From positions 66,799,719-66,863,718 of the forward strand of contig OY720348.1 in NCBI GenBank assembly GCA_963082975.1: 64,000 nt of DNA, given 5' to 3'. Made by a program: the position numbers and the translations under genes. Under the pieces are notes generated by a model. That model was not told where the DNA came from, did not search any database, and worked only from the letters and a program-made list of their open reading frames with translations. The stretch is from Labia minor. Its lineage: Eukaryota; Arthropoda; Insecta; Dermaptera; Spongiphoridae. Below are positions 15,215 through 64,000 of the stretch, piece after piece (the stretch's first letter is position 1; each line of letters begins with the position of its first letter).

Positions 15215-16257
15215 CTAGCTGCTCAGAGCGCCTTCGGCGCTCTTCACACCTAGACGGGGGCTCCGCCCCCTGTACCCCCGAGTGGTACATAGTATTTGCT
15301 TGACAGTAGTAAAAGGTTTTCATCCATTTTGTTTCAATATATTACATAAAACATTCATAGAGATATGTAAGAATACTGTGATATAATTAACGTCAAAATT
15401 TTTCGGTCAGACAGACAAATATAAAAAATTCTAAACTCACTTTTGGCTTCCAAAGATCATGAAAGGTCTGCAAAAAATTTTAAATTCTGAGCAATGTGCA
15501 GACAAAAACCTTTCTTTATATATATAGATAATAATAATAAAAAACATTTTAATAAATTTAAAAAATATACCCAATTTAAAAATGTCAAAAATTTAAAATA
15601 ACTTTATATCATCATATTTTAATTTTTATATATTTTCACTTCATAAAATACTAAATAATATTTTTTTTTATTATTCAATGATAAAATTTATATATTATTA
15701 TATTATATATATTATAGAAAAGAAGAAATATTCAATTAAATAAAAATAAATATTTTATTAAATTAATTAAAATGAGAACTTTTAGAATAAATGATTTAAA
15801 TGCATTGATATTTGAATATTAGAATTTAAAATAAAAAGTGAAATATTATAATAATTCTTTAATTGGGAATCGCTATGATAATTCATTGTTTGAAATGATT
15901 TCGCTAGGACAGTGGGCCACGCCAGGCTCTTGAATGAACAACACGGAGAATTAAATAAACTTTAAAAAATTAATTTCTGCGGTTATTGATTAAATATTAA
16001 TAAAATTTATAGCCTATGTTACTCTAGGGGTATATAAGAATATTGTGATGTAATTTCATAGAAATCGGTTCAGCCAATTCTGAGTCTATAAAATAGTAAT
16101 TTTCCGGACAGACAGACCGACAGACAGACAGACAGACATGAAAAATTCTAAAGTCACTTTTGGATTCTAGAGGTCATGAAACGCGAAGATATGCAAAAAT
16201 TTTTAAATTCTGAGCAATGTGCAGACAAAAACCTTTTTTTATATATATAGAAGAAGA
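15215..16257 (-). mobile_element. composite Helitron (Hel-1), with a shorter Helitron (15215-15528) inside
   Basis: On the minus strand the element ends in CTAG (15218-15215) after a GC-rich hairpin AGAGCGCC-GAA-GGCGCTCT. The next base is T, as expected for insertion between A and T. Two 5' termini are visible: an inner TC at 15528 and an outer TCTTCTTC start at 16257, each preceded by A. Both lead into nearly the same AAAAGGTTTTTGTCTGC start. The whole composite is repeated at 41071-42133 with unrelated flanks, so it moved as a unit. It is non-coding. Confidence 0.85.
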
Positions 16258-16260
16258 TTA

Positions 16261-17025
16261 CTAGCTGCTCAGACCACTTTCAACGCTCTTAGCATGTCGT
16301 CAAGGCCCTATACCCTCTTCAATAAAATCGAATATCTTTGTATATCTTGTATTTTTGTATTATCGTGTACACAATTATTATACTTTTAAATATTAAACTT
16401 TATATCAAAAAAGTAAAATGAGTATTAAAAAATATTAAATACTATTTGTAATGTATCTGAAATGAAAATGTAACTTTTCAAAAAATAAATTATTTTTTAT
16501 TTTTAGGGTTTGTAAATTCTTTAATTGAATTTAAATATCATGATGCGGACTCACTGTATTATTTTCTATATTTACCTGAATTTTGGGAAAAATTCACAAT
16601 ACGACATTTTTAAAAGAAATCATTCATGTTTTATTATTCTAATAATTTTATTTATATGACTCTTCAAAATTATCAGAAAATATAAGGATTATCAATGTAA
16701 TTTACAAAAAAGTCTTGTAAATTATTTGGAGCGATTATGTTTGTTAAAATATGTTGTTTTAATCGCTTACATTGACAGTCTCCGTTCTACGTGACAAAGA
16801 GCCGTTTTAAAAACGATCTTTTTTCCTGAATCCCAAAACCTTCAGAGGAGAAGAATATTCTGAAACAAGACAACTTAGAGTCTAAAACGTAACATTTTCC
16901 CAGGCATACAGACAGACATTAAAAATTCTAAAATCATTTTTAGATTCTCCACGTCATGAAACGTGAAGATGTGAAAAATTTTAAATTCTAAGCAATGTGG
17001 AGAACAAAACCTTTATAAATATGTA
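16261..17025 (-). mobile_element. older, degenerate Helitron
   Basis: Its CTAG end (16264-16261) and eroded hairpin (AGACCACTTTCAACGCTCTT) lie 3 bp from the 5' end of the composite Helitron. Its far end still shows GACAGACATTAAAAATTCTA and a GCAATGTGGAGAACAAAACC version of the Hel-1 start near 16990-17015. Confidence 0.7.
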
Positions 17026-17035
17026 TGGTATATAA

Positions 17036-21204: not shown

Positions 21205-21930
21205 GGGCTTGGAAACTTTCGAAATTCGGAATGAATTAAAACAAGGAGACGGACTATCACTAATTTAATTTAATTCAGTATTTGAATAAGTGATTAGACA
21301 AATTGTGGAAAAATCCCAGTAAACAAAAAAATTAAAGTATTAGGTTACGCAAACGACTTAAATATAATAGGGGATTCGCCAATTGCAATTAAAGATAGCG
21401 TAGAAAATTTAATCGAGGCAGGAAAAGAGGTGGAGCTTGAAATTAATAGTGATAAGACAAAGAGGAACAGTATTAACAAACAAAATCATAATATACAAAA
21501 TGTAGAATTTGAAAATTTAGAAAGATTTAATGTAATCATGAAGGAGAATAATATTCGGGAAGAATTTATTGACCAAAGAAAGATGAGGTTACCGAGGATG
21601 GCGGACACTGCAGAACGAGGAATTGAATGACTTCTATTTATCTCCAGACATAGTTAGGGTTATAAAATCGGGAAGGATGCGAAAGGCAGGACTTGTGGCT
21701 AGAATGGGAGAGGAAAAAATGGCGAAAAAGATTTAGTGGGGAGACCGATTGAAAAACGTCCGTTTGGAAAACCAAGCGCGCTGTGAGTGGACAATGTAGG
21801 AATGGTCGTGAGAGAGATGGGACAGAGTAGGAGTTAGATGGTTATAGCTCAGGATAGGTACACCTGGAGAAATGTGGTTGTTGCGGCCAAGAACTTTCGA
21901 GTTACGCAGAGCCACAGAGATAGACAGATA
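21205..21930 (+). pseudogene. LINE reverse-transcriptase fragment and 3' end
   Basis: Translation gives FEIRNELKQGDGLSLI at about 21215-21260. About 21340-21440 then gives LGYANDLNIIGDSPIAIKDS, the catalytic YxDD motif with its first Asp changed to Asn. It ends GLEINSDKTK-like. A deletion leads into the C-terminal end of the LINE (about 21650-21900) and a GATA-rich tail (GATAGACAGATAGATA, 21915-21935). Stops interrupt the frame. Related pieces lie inverted at 50458-50700, 55966-56070, 58300-58560 and 60886-61830. The clade is not resolved. Confidence 0.8.
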
Positions 21931-21939
21931 GATAAATAT

Positions 21940-22010
21940 AACTTATACAATAATAGTATATAATTAATTTACTGATTAAATTAAAATATATTTTAAATAA
22001 AAACACAAAA
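21940..22010 (+). mobile_element. Helitron (Hel-2) internal fragment after the LINE tail
   Basis: The block AATTTACTGATTAAATTAAA and what follows matches 38650-38710 and, inverted, 60800-60870. At 60.8 kb the same LINE tail also abuts it. Confidence 0.6.
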
Positions 22011-22790: not shown

Positions 22791-22910
22791 GGATCAAGAA
22801 GGGGAGAGAGGATGCAGATAAAAAAAATAATTAACAAACATGCTGCGATTTAAGAGAGGACTATGATCGGTTATAAAGTCAGGTGACAAATTTGTTAATC
22901 TCCATGTTAC

Positions 22911-23234
22911 CTGCTCGTAGGCTTACATCTCTGCTGATAACGGTACCGAGGGTGTTGCTAGCGAGACATCGATACACGATACGATGAACATCCGGACGAA
23001 ACTCGACGGCACTGAATGGAGGAAAAACTAAAGAGCCATTTCCTAATTGGTACCGCAAACTGGGCACATCCGACACCGGCTGCCCATCGATGGTTATCCA
23101 ACTTATACTTGGGGTGGGACTCCCCCGCGCCAAACAGTCCAGTCGACCACCGGTACTGTTGCTTATTTCGAGACGAACAGGAGGTTCTAGTTCGAACAAG
23201 GGTCCTTGGCCATCGGCGATACCAGCACTCGGAT
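22911..23234 (-). CDS. Dscam: Dscam-family exon: Ig1
   Basis: This 324-bp exon encodes one complete immunoglobulin domain. The acceptor ends TTGTAG (23240-23235) and the donor is GTAACA (22910-22905). Both ends are phase 1. The peptide begins DPSAGIADGQGPLFELEPPV and holds the Ig1 B-strand cysteine (RLDCLARGSPTP), the core tryptophan (SISWITIDG), NGSLVFPPF, and the F-strand cysteine (YRCLASNTLGTVISRDV). This is a very close match to the first Ig domain of Dscam proteins, including the invariant SNSTG and LVFPPF signatures. The plus-strand frame at 23016-23252 is antisense shadow. Confidence 0.93.
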
Positions 23235-23720
23235 CTACAAACAAAAGAATGAATGAATGAATCTGTAATGAGTAATCGATCAGAGAGATAGAAGGGTACA
23301 TTTTAAATCAGGTTATATAAAGTTAAATAAGCTGGAGTGTCTCCACTCGACTATCTTGCAATTTGAATTGGATTAAATAACATATATTATATTTAAATTA
23401 AATTTAATTAATTATAAATTATAAATTAAAATTAATAAATAATATTTATTAAACCAGCGCATGTTTGGCTCTTTGTTGATGGCGCGAGTTAAAAAATTAA
23501 TTTTGGTACTTTCAGCGATTCAATCAAGCTGAAATTCTATATATAGCAGTTTTATACAATTTTTAATCATGTGAAAAATTATCAAATATATATCTTTATT
23601 TTTACGGTCACTTTAGAGGAAAAAAAATCAAAACATGGTAGGTAATGACCCACTTCCGGATAAGCTACATTTCTCAAAAGTTGATAGAAAACTACGAATT
23701 TTGAATAATACCCGTGTACC

Positions 23721-38361: not shown

Positions 38362-38832
38362 TCTATATATTTAAAAGACAGTTCTATCACATAATGCTCC
38401 GAAACGATTTATGCGATTTGGGCCATTCTAATGCCATTTGATAGCCCTCGGGCTAATCTATTAATAGCGTGATATTCATTGGAAAACAATAAATACTTTT
38501 TGAGAAAAGTGAAAAAATAATTTTTTTCTTACTTTTTATTATTTTTGACGTCATTTGTGACGTCACATCCAGTGCCTCTTATATCTTATAATATTTTTCA
38601 ATCTTTTGCGTTTCAATTTCGTTGCGTGAGGGCTCTCACACTGGTCCGCTAATATATAATTAATTTACTGATTAAATTAAAATATATTTTAAATAAGAAC
38701 ACAAAAAGAAATGAATGTTTTATGTAATATACTGATTGAAACAAAATGGATGAAAACCTTTTACTACTTTCAACCAAATACTATGTACTACTGGGGGGTA
38801 CAGGGGGCGGATTCGGCGCTCTTCACACCTAG
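38362..38832 (+). mobile_element. Helitron (Hel-2), complete, with altered 3' end
   Basis: It starts TCTATATATTTAAAAGAC, preceded by A (38361), and ends CTAG followed by T (38833). It is 471 bp and non-coding. The body matches 51387-51927 (inverted). The last 21 bases (TTCGGCGCTCTTCACACCTA plus G) are the reverse complement of the corresponding part of the canonical end at 42097-42117. Confidence 0.88.
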
Positions 38833-38993
38833 TTAATTTTATATTCATTGTCGGAAATTTTTCACTTAAAATATAGTAGTAATATTAATTAATTTGAATT
38901 ATTGAGTAATAAAATTATAAATAAAAACCAAGATAATATAATTTAGTCATTTTAATTCAAGTTTTAAAAATATTTTTTTATTTTGATACTTTA

Positions 38994-40179
38994 CGAGGGT
39001 GGGGTGAAAAGATTCCGGCTTGACCAAGAAAAACGATGTTTGTAAATATTTTTTTTGCTTTATTTTTTAAAAATTCAAGATAGCTGAGACCTGTACCATG
39101 TCAGCTGAACGTTTGCGGAATATTTTGCACAACCATTTGAATATGGAAAGCTGTGTGCAAGGTGGGTGCCGCGTTTGCTAACGTTAGACCAAAAACTGCT
39201 TCGAAAAACCATTTCTACCGACAATTTGGCGCTGTAGGCGTAATCCGAACGAATTTTTGCGTCGATTCATAACTGTTGATGAGACTTAAATTAAATTCAT
39301 TTTTTTGAATTACTTAATTAAATTAAATTTATTTTTTTTCAATTAATTAATTAAATTAAATTAAATTTTTGAATTAATTAAATTAAATTAAATTTTTGAA
39401 TTAATTAAATTAAATTAAATTTTTGAATTAATAAAAATAAATTAAATTTTTGAATTAATAAAAATAAATTAAATTTTTGAATTAATTAAATTAAATTAAA
39501 TTTTTGAATTAATTAAATTAAATTAAATTTTTGAATTAATTAAATTAAATTAAATTTTTGAATTAATTAAATTAAATTAAATTTTTGAATTAATTAAATT
39601 AAATTAAATTTTTGAATTAATTAAATTAAATTAAATTTTTGAATTAATTAAATTAAATTAAATTTTTGAATTAATTAAATTAAATTAAATTTTTGAATTA
39701 ATTAAATTAAATTAAATTTTTGAATTAATTAAATTAAATTAAATTTTTGAATTAATTAAATTAAATTAAATTTTTGAATTAATTAAATTAAATTAAATTT
39801 TTGAATTAATTAAATTAAATTAAATTTTTGAATTAATTAAATTAAATTAAATTTTTGAATTAATTAAATTAAATTAAATTTTTGAATTAATGAAAATAAA
39901 TTAAATTTTTGAATTAATTAAATTAAATTAAATTTTTGAATTAATGAAATTAAATTAAATTTTTGAATTAATTAAATTAAATTAAATTTTTGAATTAATT
40001 AAATTAAATTAAATTTTTGAATTAATTAAATTTAATTTAATTTTCTGAATTTATTAATTAATTAAATTAATTAGAACACCGTATGTATGGAGATTATGTT
40101 GAAAAATATAGCAAAAAAAAAAAAAATTTAAAAACATCGTTTTTCTTGGTCAGACCAGAAAATATTCACCCCACCCTCG
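38994..40179 (+). mobile_element. mariner M1-type element whose interior is a minisatellite
   Basis: TA (38992-38993 and 40180-40181) flanks inverted ends beginning CGAGGGTGGGGTGAA. The left part encodes a frameshifted transposase start (MSAERLRNILHN, about 39100) and a middle part (LLTLDQKLLRKTISTDNLAL, RRNPNEFLRRFITVDET, to about 39285). The rest of the gene, including the remaining catalytic residues, is gone and replaced by the tandem repeat at 39330-40045. Confidence 0.9.
39330..40045. repeat. 27-bp minisatellite, about 26 copies
   Basis: The unit is TTTTTGAATTAATTAAATTA followed by AATTAAA. It is nearly invariant over about 715 bp, with a few variants (TAATAAAAATAAATT at about 39430-39470, TAATGAAAATAAATT at about 39888). 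There are no spacers, so it is not a CRISPR array. It starts abruptly after the mariner VDET motif. Confidence 0.95.
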
Positions 40180-41070: not shown

Positions 41071-42133
41071 TCTTCTTCTTCTATATATATAAAAAAAGGT
41101 TTTTGTCTGCACATTGCTCAGAATTTAAAAATTTTTGCATATCTTCGCGTTTCATGACCTCTAGAATCCAAAAGTGACTTTAGAATTTTTCACGTCTGTC
41201 TGTCTGTCTGTCCGGAAAATTACTATTTTATAGACTCAGAATTGGCTGAACCGATTTCTTTGAAATTACATCACAATATTCTCATATACCCCTAGAGTAA
41301 CATAGGCTATAAATTTTATTAATATTTAATCAATAACCGCAGAAATTAATTTTTTAAAGTTTATATAATTCTCCGTGTTGTTCATTCAAGAGCCTGGCGT
41401 GGCCCACTGTCCTTAGCGGAATCATTTCAAACAATGAATTATCATAGCGATTCCCAATTAAAGAATTATTATAATATTTCACTTTTTATTTTAAATTCTA
41501 ATATTCAAATATCAATGCATTTAAATCATTTATTCTAAAAGTTCTCATTTTAATTAATTTAATAAAATATTTATTAGATCATATTTTTATCATAAATTAT
41601 TTTTTATTTAATTGAATATTCTTTTCTATAATATATATAATATAATAATATATAAATTTTATCATTGAATAATAAAAAAAAAATATTATTTAGTATTTTA
41701 TGAAGTGAAAATATATAAAAATTAAAATATGATGATATAAAGTTATTTTAAATTTTTGACATTTTTAAATTGGGTATATTTTTTAAATTTATTAAAATGT
41801 TTTTTATTATTATTATCTATATATATAAAAAAAGGTTTTTGTCTGCACATTGCTCAGAATTTAAAATTTTTTGCAGACCTTTCATGATCTTTGGAAGCCA
41901 AAAGTGTGTTTAGAATTTTTTATATTTGTCTGTCTGACCGAAAAATTTTGACGTTAATTATATCACAGTATTCTTACATATCTCTATGAATGTTTTATGT
42001 AATATACTGATTGAAACAAAATGGATGAAAACCTTTTACTACTGTCAAGCAAATACTATGTACCACTCGGGGGTACAGGGGGCGCAGCCCCCGTCTAGGT
42101 GTGAAGAGCGCCGAAGGCGCTCTGAGCAGCTAG
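41071..42133 (+). mobile_element. composite Helitron (Hel-1); short Helitron 41816-42133 forms its 3' part
   Basis: The outer 5' end is TCTTCTTC at 41071 (A before it). The inner 5' end is TC at 41816 (A at 41815). The common 3' end is CTAG at 42130-42133 with T following. Before the end come two GC-rich hairpins: GGGGGC-GCA-GCCCCC and AGAGCGCC-GAA-GGCGCTCT. It is a near-copy of 15215-16257 (inverted). Confidence 0.9.
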
Positions 42134-48213: not shown

Positions 48214-48690
48214 CGAGGTCTATTCAAAATAAAAAGTGAATTTTGAATTTTCTCGGGCTTGGTACACATATGTTGACATTATCAGCCATTTTGGATTAGT
48301 AGTTTTTTTGACAACTGAAAAAAGTTACTCACGTTTTGTGTGTTCTTCGATTTTTTATTTAAAAAACAAATAAGGAACACTACCAGGAAGTTATGCAACC
48401 TTTGCATGAAGCAATATTGCTTTAACGATCGAAATTATGAAAAAACAAATCATGTATTCTGCATCACGATAATGCACCAGCTCACATCATTGCTTGTTGG
48501 TGATTTTTTGGCCAAAACAACACCGCCTCAACCATCGTATTCACCAGGTTTCGCTCCCTGCGACTTTTTCCTATTTCCAAAACTGAAGAGACCAATGAAA
48601 GGAAAGTGTTTTGCCACAATCGATGAGATAAAGTCGGAATTGAAGAATGAGCTGATAGGCTTACCGAAAATAATCTCAAACTTTTAAATT
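48214..48690 (+). mobile_element. mariner remnant M3
   Basis: The left end ACGAGGTCTATTCAAAATAA follows TA. A decayed transposase C-terminus remains: HHDNAPAHIIACW then a stop, and in another frame FAPCDFFLFPKLKRPMKGKC to about 48685. The N-terminal and middle regions and the right terminal repeat are missing. It is a different lineage from M1 and M2. Confidence 0.8.
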
Positions 48691-54259: not shown

Positions 54260-55115
54260 GGTCTTTCAAATTGGATATCTTTTTAATCCTTAAATAAAAT
54301 ACACAATTTGCATTGATTTCAAAAAAATTTTTATTGGTCATTAAAGTATAGTGTATGACATTTAAAGTGTATAATATAAAGTGTATTCATAGTTTATGAC
54401 ATTTATACGGATGGCTTTTCTCAAAAAATCATTTTTTTCACATTTTGAAATTGGTGGCTATGTTAATAAACAAAATTGCCGTATTTGGGGTGAGGAAAAT
54501 CCACGACTGATTCATCAAAAACCATTACTTCCTAAACGGATTACTGTTTGGTGTGAGTTGTGGTCAGGAGGTGTCATTGGTCCATACTTTTTCGAAAATG
54601 ATTCTAGTGAACCTGTTAACGTGAATTGCCTGCGATATCGTGAAATGATAACTAACTTTTTGTGGCCTAAATTGAACAATCATAACCTGGAAGGCGTGTG
54701 GTTTCAGCAAAATGGTTCAACCTGTTACACTCCTCAAAAAAACACATCGAGTTGTTACAAGAAAAATTTCCTCCAGAAATGGTGATGTTAATTGGCCATC
54801 AAGATCATGGGATCTGACACCATTGGACTACTTTCTCTGGGGTTACGTGAAAAACCAGGTTGATAAGAATGATCCACAATCGATTCCTGAACTGAAGGAC
54901 AAAATTATTCAAATTATTGGAGGATTAGAACTGCAATTATGCCAAAATGTCATTGAAAATTTTGACAAAAGATTTCGCATTTGTGGAGCTTCACGAGGTG
55001 GACATATGGCAGATATTAGTTTTTGTGTTTCAATGTCATACACTATACTATGACAAATAAAAAATTTTTTGAAATCAATGCAAATTGTGTATTTTAATTA
55101 AGGATTAAAAAAACC
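54256..55115 (+). mobile_element. Tc1/mariner-superfamily element with about 85-bp inverted ends, dead transposase
   Basis: Long inverted ends (about 54280-54365 and 55030-55115) share TACACAATTTGCATTGATTT and GTATAGTGTATGACATT. The transposase fragment runs GGYVNKQNCRIWGEENPRLI, TVWCELWSGGVIGPYFFEND, then WFQQNGSTCY, where the usual catalytic Asp is Asn. After a frameshift it continues RNGDVNWPSRSWDLTPLDYF to about 55050. The N-terminal domain is missing. A (TA)n tract (54223-54255) precedes it. Confidence 0.85.
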
Positions 55116-57601: not shown

Positions 57602-58290
57602 AAAATTATAATTAATAAGAACTTTTATATTAAATTAATACTACTACTATATGTAATCAATTTATATTATTATTTTCAAAACAAAAAAAAAACAAAAAAT
57701 ACACGTGACTAATTCTCTTGGAGAGGTTTAAAGCTGTGTATGATTGTTCATTATACGAAATCACGAGTTAAGCGGAATTGATCCACAATAGCCACTAGAA
57801 TTTTATTAAATTTCAAGTAACTTTGGTCTGGAATCTTATCTTGATGTCGTTCTATTCACCTGTCAACCATTCCTGTATTAACTTCTCGAGATTTCTATAA
57901 AGCCTAGTGGAGTCAAAAAGTAACCACCCTTAGTTTCATAAACACTTGATATGGCTAAAAGTATCATCGCCATTGTTCTCGCTCCGCTCATTCTTAGCAT
58001 CTTTCAAAAAACAAAAAAGTGGCATGGAATCTGTTGACATGTCAGATCAGAATACTTTTACACAGATAAATTATAATATTTTACGAGGGTAGTCTAAAAA
58101 TTTTAGAGATAAAATTTTTCTTAAAAAAAAAAATTTCATTTTATGGTCTCTTATTAAAATCAGATTAGCTTAGTATTTTAATGTATCAATTTATTTTGTA
58201 TTCATAGATAAATATATAGATATATTGGGTAAAGATAGGAAATTAATGGTTATATTGCTCAGAATAGTCAGTAAGCATGTTAGTTCACTT
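57602..58290. other. non-repetitive AT-rich sequence; possible mariner end at about 58081
   Basis: TACGAGGGTAGTCTAAAAAT resembles a mariner terminal repeat but no partner end or transposase is visible. Confidence 0.35.
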
Positions 58291-58299
58291 TATATCTAT

Positions 58300-58560
58300 G
58301 TTTCTGGCTCTACGGAACTCGAAAGTTCTTGGCCGCAGCAACCACATTCCTCCAAATATCCATATCCTGAGCTACACCCAACCAACTTTTATTTTCTCCC
58401 ATTCTTTTTCCCATCCGCGTCCAACCGGACGTCTCCATATCGCTACAAATATATTTTTTGCTAGTCTATCATCATCTAATCTTGCTAGGAGTCCTGCCCA
58501 TCGCAACCTTCTTAATTTTATTATTCTTACTATTTCTGGAGATGCATAGAGGTCATGCCA
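58300..58560 (-). mobile_element. LINE 3' end fragment
   Basis: It shares TTCTTGGCCGCAGCAACCAC and TTTCTGGAGATGCATAGAGG with the other LINE 3' fragments. Frames on the plus strand here are antisense. Confidence 0.75.
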
Positions 58561-58644
58561 ATGCCCTTTATGCAGTTTCGTTGATTTTTGTTTTCCTATT
58601 TAAAAGTGAAGGGTATCAATTGTATCTATGTCTAATAAAAAAAT

Positions 58645-59113
58645 CAGCTGTGACCAGGCTCAGAACCGACAGACGATTTGAAATAAATTAATTTCCAAAC
58701 ATTATATATATAAAGTATATTAAAAAAATATTTTTAAAACTTGTTTTAAAATGACTAAATTATATTATCTTGTTTTTTTTTTTAATTGTATTACCCAATT
58801 ATTAATTTCTACTATATTTTAAGTGAAATATTTCCGACAATGAATATAAAATTAATACTTTGTAAACTACCACTTACGGTTTCCGAGTATAGACCAAAAG
58901 TTGATGAATTCATCCTTCTGATGTATTAAGTAAATATACCAAATTTTATTTTAGTCTGTTGAGCCGTTCAAGCTATACGGGTCTATACGGACACACAGAC
59001 GGACAGACATCATGATAAAAATACTTTTTTTGTTAACGAAATGCTGCTTCGTGGAGATATATAAAAATCTCCAAATGTGAAAACAATACCATCCATTCCT
59101 ATCGTCGGTCGAT
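58645..59113 (-). mobile_element. Family B variant, uninterrupted
   Basis: It runs from GCTGTGACCAGGCTCAGAAC to CCTATCGTCGGTCGATA. It is the empty-site counterpart of 38083-40252. Confidence 0.88.
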
Positions 59114-59244
59114 AAAAATGAAATTTGTCCACAGCAGCGCCATCTAACAACACATAAAGTTTCCGGAAGTCCTATTTGCGTGTCACACATCTGCTTATAA
59201 CCTAGTATATATTTTATAATTGATAATAGATTAATCAATTAAAA
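59114..59244 (+). other. 5' flank of the zinc-finger gene
   Basis: It contains GCAGCGCCATCTAACAACAC and AT-rich sequence before the ATG. A promoter cannot be pinpointed. Confidence 0.4.
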
Positions 59245-60655
59245 ATGGATCTTAATTCACAAGAAGACAAAAAATATCCAATATATATAGGTAATTTTTA
59301 TTACTATGTTTTTTTTATTCGAAAATAATGTCAATTTTTTTGTTATTAATATTTGTTAATACGAACGCAATGGTAAAGTTTTATCCAAATTCATGTTGGA
59401 GTAACTTTTTTGTATAATTTCCAAAAATATAATGATTTAAAATAACGAAAACAATGATTTTTTTTTAGGTCCTCTATATTCTTGTGTATATTGTCAAATG
59501 AATTTTATAAGTGAGGAATTTTTATGTAAACATCTAAAAAAATGTTTTCATAAAAAAATATTTTCAATTTTCAAAAATGATGTTAAACTCAAAAAGGATA
59601 CAGAGCAATATACAGACGAAAAAATTAAAGAAGAAACTGATTCAATCCATTCAGAAGACAATCGTTTACAATGTAATTATTGTGAAAAGAAATTTAAATG
59701 GAAATCAAATTTAAATAGACATTTATTAATTCATACAGGAGAAAACCCTTTTGAATGTAATTATTGTGAAAAGAAATTTAAATGGAAATCAAATTTAGAT
59801 CAACATTTATTAATTCATACAGGAGAAAAACCTTTTGGATGTAATTATTGTGAAAAGAAATTTAAATGGAAATCAAGTTTAGATAAACATTTATTAATTC
59901 ATTCAGGAGAAAAACCTTTTGAATGTAATTACTGTAAAAAGAAATTTAAACAAAAATCATCTTTAAATAGACATTTATTAATTCATTCAGGAGAAAAACC
60001 TCTTGAATGTAATTATTGTGAAAAGAAATTTAATGATAAATCAACTTTAAATAAACATTTATTAATTCATACAGGAGAAAAACCTTTTGAATGTAATTAC
60101 TGTGAAAAAAGATTTAATGTGAAATCAAATTTAAAAAGACATTTATTAATTCATACAGGAGAAAAACCTTTTGAATGTAATTATTGTGAAAAGAAATTTA
60201 ATCACAAATCAAATTTAGATCAACATTTATTAATTCATACAGTAGAAAAACCTTTTGGATGTAATTACTGTGAAAAGAAATTTACTGTGAAATCAAGTTT
60301 AGATAAACATTTATTAATTCATTCAGGAGAAAAACCTTTTGAATGTAATTATTGTGAAAAGATATTTAAATGGAAATCAAATTTAGATCAACATTTATTA
60401 ATTCATACAGAAGAAAAACCTTTTGAATGTAATTACTGTGAAAAGAAATTTACTGTGAAATCAAGTTTAGATAAACATTTTTTAATTCATACAGGACCTT
60501 TTGAATGTAATTACTGTGAAAAGAAATTCACTGTGAAATCAAATTTAAAAAGACATTTACTAATTCATACAGGAGAAAAACCTTTTGAATGTAATTATTG
60601 TGAAAAGAAATTTACTAGGAAATCTACTTTAAATAAACATTTATTAATACACTAG
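59245..60655 (+). CDS. C2H2 zinc-finger protein (two exons), C-terminus cut by a Helitron
   Basis: Exon 1 is 59245-59290 and encodes MDLNSQEDKKYPIYI. A 178-bp intron (59291-59468, GTAATT...TTTTTTAG) splits a Gly codon. Exon 2 is 59469-60655. The predicted protein is 410 residues. It has one divergent N-terminal finger (CVYC-x12-H-x5-H), an acidic/basic linker, and 12 fingers of the form CNYCEKKF...H-LLI-H joined by TGEKPF-type linkers. It is probably a nuclear DNA-binding protein. Variation between fingers is concentrated in the recognition helix. Finger 10 has a shortened linker (HTG-PF, two codons deleted). The last His codon and TAG stop are created by a Helitron (minus strand, CTAG at 60652-60655). 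Downstream fingers, if any existed, have been separated. No KRAB, BTB or ZAD domain is visible. Confidence 0.88.
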
Positions 60656-60880
60656 CTGCTCAGAGCGCCTTCGGCGCTCTTCACACCTAGACGGGGGCTC
60701 CGCCCCCTGTACCCCCGAGTTGTACATAGTATTTGGTGGTTGAAAGTATTAAAAGGTTTTCATCCATTTTGTTTCAATCAGTATATTACATAAAACATTC
60801 ATTTCTTTTTGTGTTCTTATTTAAAAAATATATTTTAATTTAATCACTATATTAATTATATATATTATTATTGTATATGT
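60652..60880 (-). mobile_element. Helitron 3' end (Hel-2 type tail), inserted in the zinc-finger gene
   Basis: CTAG at 60652-60655, the hairpin AGAGCGCC-TTC-GGCGCTCT and the GGGGGC/GCCCCC hairpin are all intact. The sequence then follows the common Hel tail (CATCCATTTTGTTTCAATCA) up to about 60860, where LINE sequence begins. Confidence 0.88.
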
Positions 60881-61830
60881 TATATCTATCTACCTATGTG
60901 GCTCAAAGATACTCTAAAGTTCTTAGCCGCAACAACCACATTTCTCCAAGTGTCCCTATCCTGAGCCCTTATTCCATCTCTCTTACGTCCCTTCCTACGC
61001 GTCATTGGTTTTCCAAGCGGACGTTTTCCAATCGGTCTTCCCACCAATATCTTTTTCCTCTCCCATTCTTGCCACGTGCCCTGCCTATCGCAGCTTTTCC
61101 CTTTTATAACCCTAACTATTTCTGAAGATGCAGAGAGGCCATGCAATTTCTTGTTATACAGTCTCCCTCATACCCGGTGACCTCATCTTTCTTTGGCCAA
61201 TAAATCCTATTCTCAAATACTCTGAATCTACTCTCATCTCCAAGGGTCATAGACCATGCCTCCCACCCATATAATGCAACAGGCAAAATATTCTTTTTAT
61301 ATATTCCCTTTGATAATAATTTTGAAGAGATAAGCCTCTTTATTGCAGATAACAGGCGTTTCCCGATTGCAACCCCGATTTAAATTCTTCTCAAATATTA
61401 TTATCCTTCGTGATTACATTCAATTTTTCTACATATTCAAATTCTACATTTTGTATCTTAAGATTTTGTATGTTAATACTCTTCCTCTTTGTTACTAAAT
61501 ATTTTTTCTTATCACTATTAATTTCAAACCTCCATTAAATTTTCCTCGCTATCTGTAATTGCAATTGCCGAATCTCCTATTATATTTAAGTCGTCTGAGT
61601 AACCTAATATTTTACAATTGATTTCCGCATCTTATTCTTTCTTTACTACCTTCAAGAGAAATTTGAAGATTGAAAATTTGAAAAAGTTTATCCGGATCTA
61701 TTGAGTTATGCGTATGTTTTACTAAAGTCTACAAATAATTAGTGAACAGAAATATTGAATTCGCGGTTTAGTTCCTAATATCTGTCATAATGAAAATATC
61801 TTAATTAATGTTGGTCGATTTGGCCTGAAC
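60881..61830 (-). pseudogene. LINE reverse-transcriptase fragment with 3' end
   Basis: On the minus strand, from about 61830, is a FxxNRS-like stretch, then NIxVHxLFVDFSKTYA-like (about 61760-61690), then GYSDDLNIIGDSAIAITDSE (about 61605-61545, the intact catalytic YxDD). It continues with a C-terminal region ending GRPIGKRPLGKPMTRRKGRK and QDRDTWRNVVVAAKNFRVSL (to about 60905) and an inverted GATA tail. Frameshifts and stops make it non-functional. Its 3' end abuts the Helitron tail, as at 21205-22010. Confidence 0.8.
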
Positions 61831-63109
61831 CCGCAATGATATCTCCTAATATTTCCTCCGCCTATAGTTTATAAGTATTGTATATGTTATAATAGAGTAT
61901 AATATTTCTTGATCATTACATTTTGGTATTTTATTTTCATTGCTAGATTATTATTGAATATTTTTAATTATAATGAAACTTGAGAAAATGCAAAAATAGA
62001 GACTTGAGACAATTTATAAAAATTAACGGTATAAAACTATAGATAAATGACCAATATATACATTCATTAATAGTATTAATTTAAATTAATTGATTTATTT
62101 GTTTTTTTTATTATTAAGTTCATTTATTAATTTTTTTAGATCATAGTTATTTTCCTTAAAAGAGACTTATCTAATTCTGTGGTGCTAGGGGATTTGAAAA
62201 TTATTCGTCGCAATATGAAGATTTCGCTTACAGTTTCTGTCATGTCCGACCTCCATCCAACAGTTATTTTCTGTCAAGTTTTTTGCTTCTCTTAATCATG
62301 TGATCTATATATTTAATTTTTTTTGATTCATTATAATAAAATTTAAACAAATAAAAATTTTTACTTTGTTAATTTATATAAATTTCAATATAAACTGATT
62401 GTGAGTGATACGCTTAGCCAATACTCTGAATAATTTGTGTACAAAAATATTGAATGTTCTTAGCGAGATTTGATATAATGTTGTACGATTTGTCCTAAAT
62501 CTGAATTAGAAGAAAATTATAAATTGCCTCCTCTTCCAGCCCAATTCATTTACCCACCCATGTTGCATATGGCATCTAAATTTCTTAAAACTCCGTTTTT
62601 TTAATTTAAAATAGAAGGAGAGAAAGAGTTTTAAATTATATTCGAATTGTCTATATATTCTATATATCAGTATTTTTTTTCTGAATTTAATAGCAAGTTG
62701 ATTTTAAAAATTTTCCATTCTTAATGCATATGATTGATTACATGTGTTAAAATTTAAAAAAATTCAAATATTCTAATTTTTATATTTATATACAATTTAA
62801 TATTATTTTTTATTAATATCATATCAAAAAAAGAGAATTTATTAAAAATTAAAAATAAAAAAAGAAGCCTATTAATAAAAAATTGAATGGTGATTTAAAT
62901 ATTTTATTAAATTAATTAAAATGAGACCTTTTAGAATAAATTATTTAATTGAAATGATATTTAAATATAAGAATTTAAAAAAATATTATATTCTTTGTTT
63001 GGCAATTGTTATTTAATTATGTGCAACATGATTCGACTTGCACAGAGCATCGTTATTTTTTATTAATATCACATAATAAAAATGAATCTTTTAAACATAA
63101 TAAATAAAA
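61831..63109. other. AT-rich sequence with repeat D (62430-62590)
   Basis: The D segment (TTAGCGAGATTTGATATAAT, CTCCTCTTCCAGCCCAATTC) matches 19740-19990. The rest is AT-rich and unassigned. It may be interior to a large Helitron (60652-63923). Confidence 0.45.
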
Positions 63110-63770
63110 AAGACATTTTAATAAATTTAAAAAATATACCCAATTTAAAAATGTCAAAAATTTAAAACAACTTTATATCATCATATTTTAATTTTTATAT
63201 AATATATATATATATATTTAGTAATTAATAATAGAGTCATTAAATTAAAATAAAAAACAAAGATAATATAATTCAGTCATTTTAATTCAGGTTAAATAAT
63301 ATTTTTTTTTATTATTCAATGATAAAATTTATATATTATATATTATATATATATTATAGAAAAGAAGAAATATTCAATTAAATAAAAAATAATTTAAGAT
63401 AAAAATATGATCTAATAAATATTTTAATTAAATTGAGAACTTTTAGAATAAATTATTTAATTGAATTGATATTTGTATATTAGAATTTAAAATAAAATGT
63501 GAAATATTATAATAATTCTTTGATTGGGAATAGCTATGATAATTCATTGTTTGAAATGATTCCGCTAGGCCGACAGTGAGCCGCGAGCTGCTCTTGAATG
63601 AACAACACGGAGAATTATATAAACTTTAAAAAATTAATTTCTGCGGTTATTGATAAGATATTAATAAAATTTATAGCCTATGTTACTCTAGAGGTATATA
63701 AGAATATTGTGATGTAATTTCAAAGAAATCGGTTCAGCCAATTCTGAGTCTATAAAATAGTAATTTTCCG

Positions 63771-63809
<39 letters not shown>

Positions 63810-63923
63810 GTGAAAAATTCTAAAGTCACTTTTGGATTCTAGAGGTCATGAAACGCGAAGATATGCAAAAATTTTTAAATTCTGAGCAATGTGCAGACAA
63901 AAACCTTTTTTTATATATATAGA
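63110..63923 (-). mobile_element. Helitron (Hel-1) 5' part
   Basis: On the minus strand it starts TC at 63923, preceded by A (T at 63924 on plus). The common GGTTTTTGTCTGCACATTGC start, the GACAGACA repeat (63773-63809) and the ATTGGCTGAACCGATTT block follow. It matches 16257-15540 (inverted) and 41080-41810 and lacks the inner short Helitron. Confidence 0.85.
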
Positions 63924-64000
63924 TAATGTCTGAAAATTAGGCTTAATAAAGAAAACAAGATTTTCTTTAAATATAGCTTCTCTACTTTATATCACAAATT
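63924..64000. other. window end, nothing recognised
   Basis: There are 77 bases outside the Helitron 5' end with no signature. Confidence 0.4.

What the first reader, a model, noticed from the sequence alone, without database searches (positions are those of the whole stretch)
60640..60670. A Helitron sits inside the last histidine codon of the zinc-finger gene and supplies its stop
Every other finger ends with His as CAT. Here the sequence is CA followed by CTAG of a Helitron on the minus strand. A Helitron inserting between A and T of CAT converts the codon to CAC (still His) and puts TAG next. The protein therefore ends exactly on the last zinc ligand with finger 12 complete. The codon arithmetic is seen directly; insertion between A and T is established for Helitrons.
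Basis: partly seen in the sequence, partly recalled or inferred. Interest (0 to 1): 0.78.

Follow-up and report, generated by a model that had tools for sequence, protein, structure and literature searches.

The report
Helitron ends a zinc-finger gene
A common type of jumping DNA landed in the last codon of a zinc-finger gene and supplies its stop signal, but the joined flanks suggest that the gene ended two amino acids later anyway, so the protein was hardly changed.

Summary
The zinc-finger ORF ends CA|C TAG, and CTAG (60652-60655) is the 3' terminus of a minus-strand Helitron, with a 17-nt hairpin 11 nt from its end. A word search found six such 3' ends in the window; host A precedes CTAG in 6 of 6. 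I add the other end: a 5' TC terminus at 63923, host T at 63924. The element is 60652-63923 (3,272 bp); terminus profiles show no other family terminus in its orientation inside it.

Joining the flanks gives CAT AAT GTC TGA, so the inferred empty gene ended His-Asn-Val-stop. Finger 12 was already last. The right flank does not resemble a linker (11 of 30 identical; 9 of 10 real linkers give 28-30). The Helitron replaced two residues and probably the 3' UTR; it did not cut a longer array. The CAT-to-CAC arithmetic is generic: 75 of 152 A^T sites in exon 2 would give a synonymous codon plus TAG.

The ORF is still open although the element has roughly 1.4-3.3% changes of its own, which hints at a gene in use. 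No second allele, sister species or RNA was examined. Mostly ordinary, neatly resolved.

The parts
59245..59290 (+). putative exon 1 of the zinc-finger gene (ATG ... G|GT), inferred
   Evidence: joined CDS of 1233 nt in frame, GT-AG intron 59291-59468; no RNA evidence
59469..60655 (+). exon 2: one degenerate and 12 canonical C2H2 fingers, stop TAG supplied by the Helitron
   Evidence: (Pfam zf-C2H2 1.6e-61)
60590..60652 (+). finger 12 from its first Cys, complete to its last zinc ligand
60650..60652 (+). split His codon: CA from the gene, C from the Helitron
60653..60655 (+). stop codon TAG inside the Helitron's CTAG end
60652..63923 (-). Helitron copy A, 3,272 bp, 5' TC at 63923, 3' CTAG at 60652-60655; no ORF of 120 aa or more inside
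60663..60679 (-). 17-nt 3' hairpin, 11 nt from the 3' end
   Evidence: DNA fold of last 60 nt -21.2 kcal/mol, z -5.6
60693..60707 (-). second GC-rich hairpin, exact in copy B, one mismatch in copy C
63884..63923 (-). 5' terminus, 40 of 40 identical to the ends at 16251, 41080 and 41816
63924..63933 (+). right host flank: T + AAT GTC TGA, inferred original end of the gene (Asn-Val-stop)
   Evidence: (joined flanks)
63945..63950 (+). AATAAA in the right flank, possible original poly(A) signal (could be chance in AT-rich DNA)
60748..60753 (+). ATTAAA inside the Helitron, possible new poly(A) signal; copies B, C, E and G differ there
60807..61614 (-). LINE-like stretch inside the Helitron (two blocks, also at 21333-22010), broken by stops
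   Evidence: label recalled, no Pfam match

Best explanation
A Helitron without an ORF of its own, now 3.27 kb with nested debris, inserted on the minus strand between A and T of the last His codon (CAT) of a two-exon C2H2 gene whose array already ended there. Shown: both termini, the A and T flanks, the CAC-TAG junction and the intact ORF. Inferred from joined flanks: before insertion the gene read CAT AAT GTC TGA, so the insertion removed only Asn-Val and replaced the 3' UTR. Inferred, less surely: the gene stayed in use after the insertion.
For: 3' end: CTAG with 17-nt hairpin 11 nt away; host A before CTAG in 6 of 6 family 3' ends found by word search. 5' end exact at 63923, followed by T. 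Terminus profiles list no other 5' or 3' terminus between 60652 and 63923 at E up to 10, apart from the self-complementary echo of the 3' hairpin on the opposite strand. Compact copy F (1937-2566) carries the same 5' and 3' parts in the same order. Right flank is unlike a linker: 11 of 30 identical, a level reached by 8341 of 21562 window 30-mers starting with T; ten real linkers give 28-30 in nine cases and 13 in the one with a 6-base deletion. With indels counted, simulated neutral decay leaves the ORF open in 6.5% (1.0% substitutions), 0.2% (2.1%) and 0.0% (3.2%) of 3000 runs each.
Against: No empty allele, paralogue or transcript was seen. A and T are expected beside the ends of any Helitron of this kind, so they do not prove that both ends belong to one insertion. 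Only 77 bp of right flank are in the window. The age is uncertain: 23 of 720 sites private against B and C, but 2 of the 4 in the 3' part are shared with copies E and G, so it may be nearer 1.4%. With substitutions alone a neutral ORF survives in 45%, 19% and 8% of runs at 1.0, 2.1 and 3.2%.
Confidence: 0.78

Rival explanations
1. The array was longer and the Helitron truncated it; the lost fingers were later deleted or lie beyond another rearrangement, and the 5' end at 63923 belongs to a second element.
For: The interior of copy A is a patchwork of other repeats, and copies B and C show that composites with two 5' ends occur in this family.
Against: No second 3' or 5' terminus in the same orientation was listed between 60652 and 63923; the pattern C-X2-4-C-X12-H-X3-5-H occurs nowhere else in six frames of the window; copy F has both parts in the same order.
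Confidence: 0.12
2. The gene is a dying pseudogene; the insertion at its end is just one hit in a repeat-rich region.
For: Repeats crowd both sides (58633-59123 upstream). One linker lost 6 bases. No transcript evidence. If the insertion is young (about 1%) and indels are rare, an open ORF is no surprise (45% of runs without indels).
Against: The CDS is open over 1233 nt; differences between fingers concentrate at unit positions 9, 10, 13, 15 and 16 (helix -2, -1, 3, 5, 6, naming recalled) while Cys and His ligands are invariant in 12 of 12; neutral survival is unlikely at 2% or more when indels are counted.
Confidence: 0.3
3. Chance: CTAG is the gene's own end and the Helitron merely starts nearby.
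For: CTAG is a four-base word.
Against: The last 151 bp of the element, ending on this CTAG, align over their whole length to the ends of copies B and C, 97% identical in ungapped columns.
Confidence: 0.01

Closest known systems
Canonical non-autonomous Helitrons of animals (definition in the background of PMC4067079; insect Hel-2 family, PMC4344730; matched passages read)
   Same: 5' TC, 3' CTAG (CTRR), 16-20 nt palindrome about 11 nt from the 3' end, insertion between A and T without target duplication
   Different: Own terminal sequence; two GC-rich hairpins near the 3' end; no relative found in the viral, bacterial and archaeal collections searched
Transposon insertions that supply a gene's stop codon or 3' end (general knowledge, recalled)
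   Same: Element end gives the stop and probably the 3' UTR
   Different: Here the split codon keeps its amino acid and, by the joined flanks, only two residues are lost
Tandem C2H2 zinc-finger genes (Pfam zf-C2H2, zf-H2C2_2)
   Same: 28-residue units, TGEKP-type linkers
   Different: Protein ends on the last zinc ligand with no tail

Membership tests
Helitron (canonical) | 5' end TC | tested here: met
   TCTATATATATAA at 63923, minus strand
Helitron (canonical) | 3' end CTRR | tested here: met
   CTAG at 60652-60655
Helitron (canonical) | 16-20 nt palindrome about 11 nt from the 3' end | tested here: met
   17-nt hairpin, then 11 nt
Helitron (canonical) | insertion between A and T, no target duplication | tested here: met
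   A 60651 and T 63924; host A before CTAG in 6 of 6 3' ends found by word search. At the five 5' ends of the type TCTATATA the host base is A in 3 of 5; at the two outer ends of B and C it is T, and A only if the end is taken to extend to TCTTCT
Helitron (canonical) | empty site known from another allele or paralogue | not testable with these tools
   own genome search did not complete
Helitron (canonical) | Rep/Helicase in an autonomous partner | not tested
Helentron | ends and target unlike those of canonical Helitrons | tested here: inconclusive
   Copy A has the canonical ends and target of PMC4067079; the passages I saw do not spell out Helentron ends, and say that an intermediate element has 3' CTAG and A/T insertion too
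C2H2 zinc-finger gene | tandem C2H2 fingers | tested here: met

The most novel reading that the evidence does not exclude
Antisense Helitrons ending in CTAG act as built-in silent terminators: at any NAT codon they keep the residue (NAC) and add TAG at once, so in AT-rich tandem-repeat genes they can cap a protein exactly at a repeat boundary. Here such a cap, with a new 3' UTR, may have been kept by selection in a working zinc-finger gene.
Probability: 0.15. Interest if true: 0.45.

Novelty: new member of a known kind. Interest (0 to 1): 0.3.

Why it matters
It is a clean case, with both ends in view, of a Helitron becoming a gene's end. It also gives a simple rule that can be tested across genomes: CTAG-ended Helitrons in antisense at NAT codons terminate without changing the last residue. 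It corrects the tempting story that the element cut a longer array.

Tried and rejected
Relatives: exact-pattern scans for the Helitron 3' end found 0 stretches in viral contigs and 0 in genome contigs. Scans for relatives of the finger array found none in viral contigs or genome contigs; one pattern match in each failed confirmation. These collections hold viral, bacterial and archaeal records, so the negatives say little about insects. Rfam gave 0 matches at gathering scores. Pfam gave none for two LINE-like peptides.

A continuing array beyond the Helitron was considered and rejected on the right flank. My first anchored comparison was one base out of register; one search is the corrected one. 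The local alignment of right flank to array is no better than shuffles (score 22 against a mean of 20.9; 189 of 500 shuffles reach it).

Literature: searches (25 of 34 papers listed; 0; 4 of 4; 2 of 2; 15 of 53; 12 of 439; 15 of 3,355) showed, in listed titles and abstract starts, no paper on the CTAG/NAT stop rule or on a Helitron supplying the stop of a zinc-finger gene. I read matched passages only of PMC4344730, PMC4067079, PMC13253262, PMC9783078 and PMC10095026. The listings are capped and most subscription journals are missing, so I do not claim absence from print.

The Helentron row went from not met to inconclusive, because the passages seen do not define Helentron ends.

Full report
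Observation. The ORF 59441-60655 ends TTA TTA ATA CAC TAG; CAC is 60650-60652 and TAG 60653-60655. In 12 canonical fingers the last His codon is CAT in 11 and CAC only in finger 12; the Ile codon before it is ATT in 11 and ATA in finger 12. Self-comparison of 58001-64000 against the window shows array-to-array matches reaching the array's end stopping at 60651, and matches to the full Helitron 3' ends starting at 60651 (copy C) or 60645 (copy B, a few extra letters); with the element alone as query both start at 60652.

The element. On the minus strand the sequence up to CTAG holds a 17-nt hairpin followed by 11 nt, and a second GC-rich hairpin; the last 60 nt fold as DNA at -21.2 kcal/mol, z -5.6 against 200 shuffles. 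A word search found the same kind of 3' end at 15215 and 42133, and in diverged or shortened form at 16261, 19511 and 51386; all six, this one included, have host A before CTAG (T after it, read in the element's direction). Copies E (38652-38832) and F (1937-2566) have lost or rearranged this end. The 5' end TCTATATATATAAAAAAAGG... occurs five times in the window within 3 mismatches of 40 (15528, 16251, 41080, 41816, 63923), that of copy A without mismatch. Copy A is thus 60652-63923, 3,272 bp, with A at 60651 and T at 63924. Profiles built from seven 5' and five 3' ends list no further terminus inside it in its own orientation at E up to 10. Copy F, about 0.6 kb, carries the same two end parts in the same order. 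Copy A has no ORF of 120 aa or more and holds a LINE-like stretch also found at 21333-22010 (the label is recalled, Pfam gave nothing).

The empty site. Joining 60651 to 63924 restores CAT and continues AAT GTC TGA, so the inferred older protein ended HLLIHNV. The next 30 bases match the linker expected if the array went on at 11 of 30; 8341 of 21562 window 30-mers beginning with T do as well, whereas ten real linkers score 28-30 in nine cases and 13 in the one with a deletion. An AATAAA lies at 63945. So finger 12 was probably the last finger before the Helitron came. This is inference from one haplotype and 77 bp of flank.

The arithmetic. The exon-2 part of the ORF has 152 A^T sites, 75 of them in phase 2 (NA|T). 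An antisense copy gives a synonymous codon and TAG at 75 of 75 of these; in phase 0 (58 sites) the stop follows after 12 foreign codons, in phase 1 (19 sites) after 30 codons counted from the split one. Twelve of the 75 are last-ligand His codons. The exact ending at the last ligand is therefore a fair chance outcome, helped by survival: insertions at the end of a gene do least harm (inference).

Is the gene alive? A 1233-nt CDS with a GT-AG intron is open from ATG to TAG. Copy A has 19 of 576 (5' part) and 4 of 144 (3' part) private substitutions against B and C, and 5 private indel events; 2 of the 4 in the 3' part are shared with copies E and G and so belong to B and C instead, which puts the divergence between about 1.4% (2 of 144) and 3.3% (19 of 576). 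With indels a neutral ORF stays open in 6.5%, 0.2% and 0.0% of 3000 runs at 1.0, 2.1 and 3.2% substitutions; without indels in 45%, 19% and 8% (indel rates and the 75% frameshift share are my settings). Differences among fingers sit mainly at unit positions 9, 10, 13, 15 and 16, the DNA-facing helix (naming recalled), while the Cys and His ligands are invariant. This favours a gene used after the insertion, but it is not proof.

Comparison with known kinds. The definition used (5' TC, 3' CTRR, palindrome about 11 nt from the end, A/T target, no duplication) is in a passage of PMC4067079; an insect family with CTAG ends and A/T flanks is in passages of PMC4344730. Copy A meets each feature that I could test on it; two outer 5' ends of copies B and C fit the A rule only if taken as longer. 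Searches of viral, bacterial and archaeal collections found no relative. The window's own genome could not be searched.

Verdict. Observation confirmed; mechanism right; the implied truncation of a longer array not supported. A tidy ordinary insertion with one small general rule.

Noticed in passing
15215-16257 and 41071-42133: Copies B (-) and C (+) share the same composite structure: a small Helitron (314 and 318 bp) with its own 5' end joined to a longer 5' part; their outer 5' ends look extended to TCTTCT.
   Followed up: partly
38652-38835: Copy E ends in an inverted piece of the hairpin region that again gives CTAG followed by T, as if a new 3' end arose by inversion.
   Followed up: no
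16261-17028: A diverged copy of the family with both termini lies directly beside the outer 5' end of copy B.
   Followed up: no
58633-59123: A dispersed repeat, also near 13.9, 20.3, 24.3, 35.8, 38.2 and 42.9 kb, ends about 120 bases before the gene's ATG.
   Followed up: no
39290-40060: Long AT-rich tandem array (units like TTAATTAAATTAAATTAAATTTTTGAA), seen.
   Followed up: no
1475-1915, 48319-48687, 54393-55053: ORF pieces that look like mariner-type transposases (label recalled, not searched).
   Followed up: no
465-827 and 22879-23307, minus strand: ORFs resembling Dscam-like immunoglobulin exons (label recalled, not searched), suggesting an arthropod genome.
   Followed up: no
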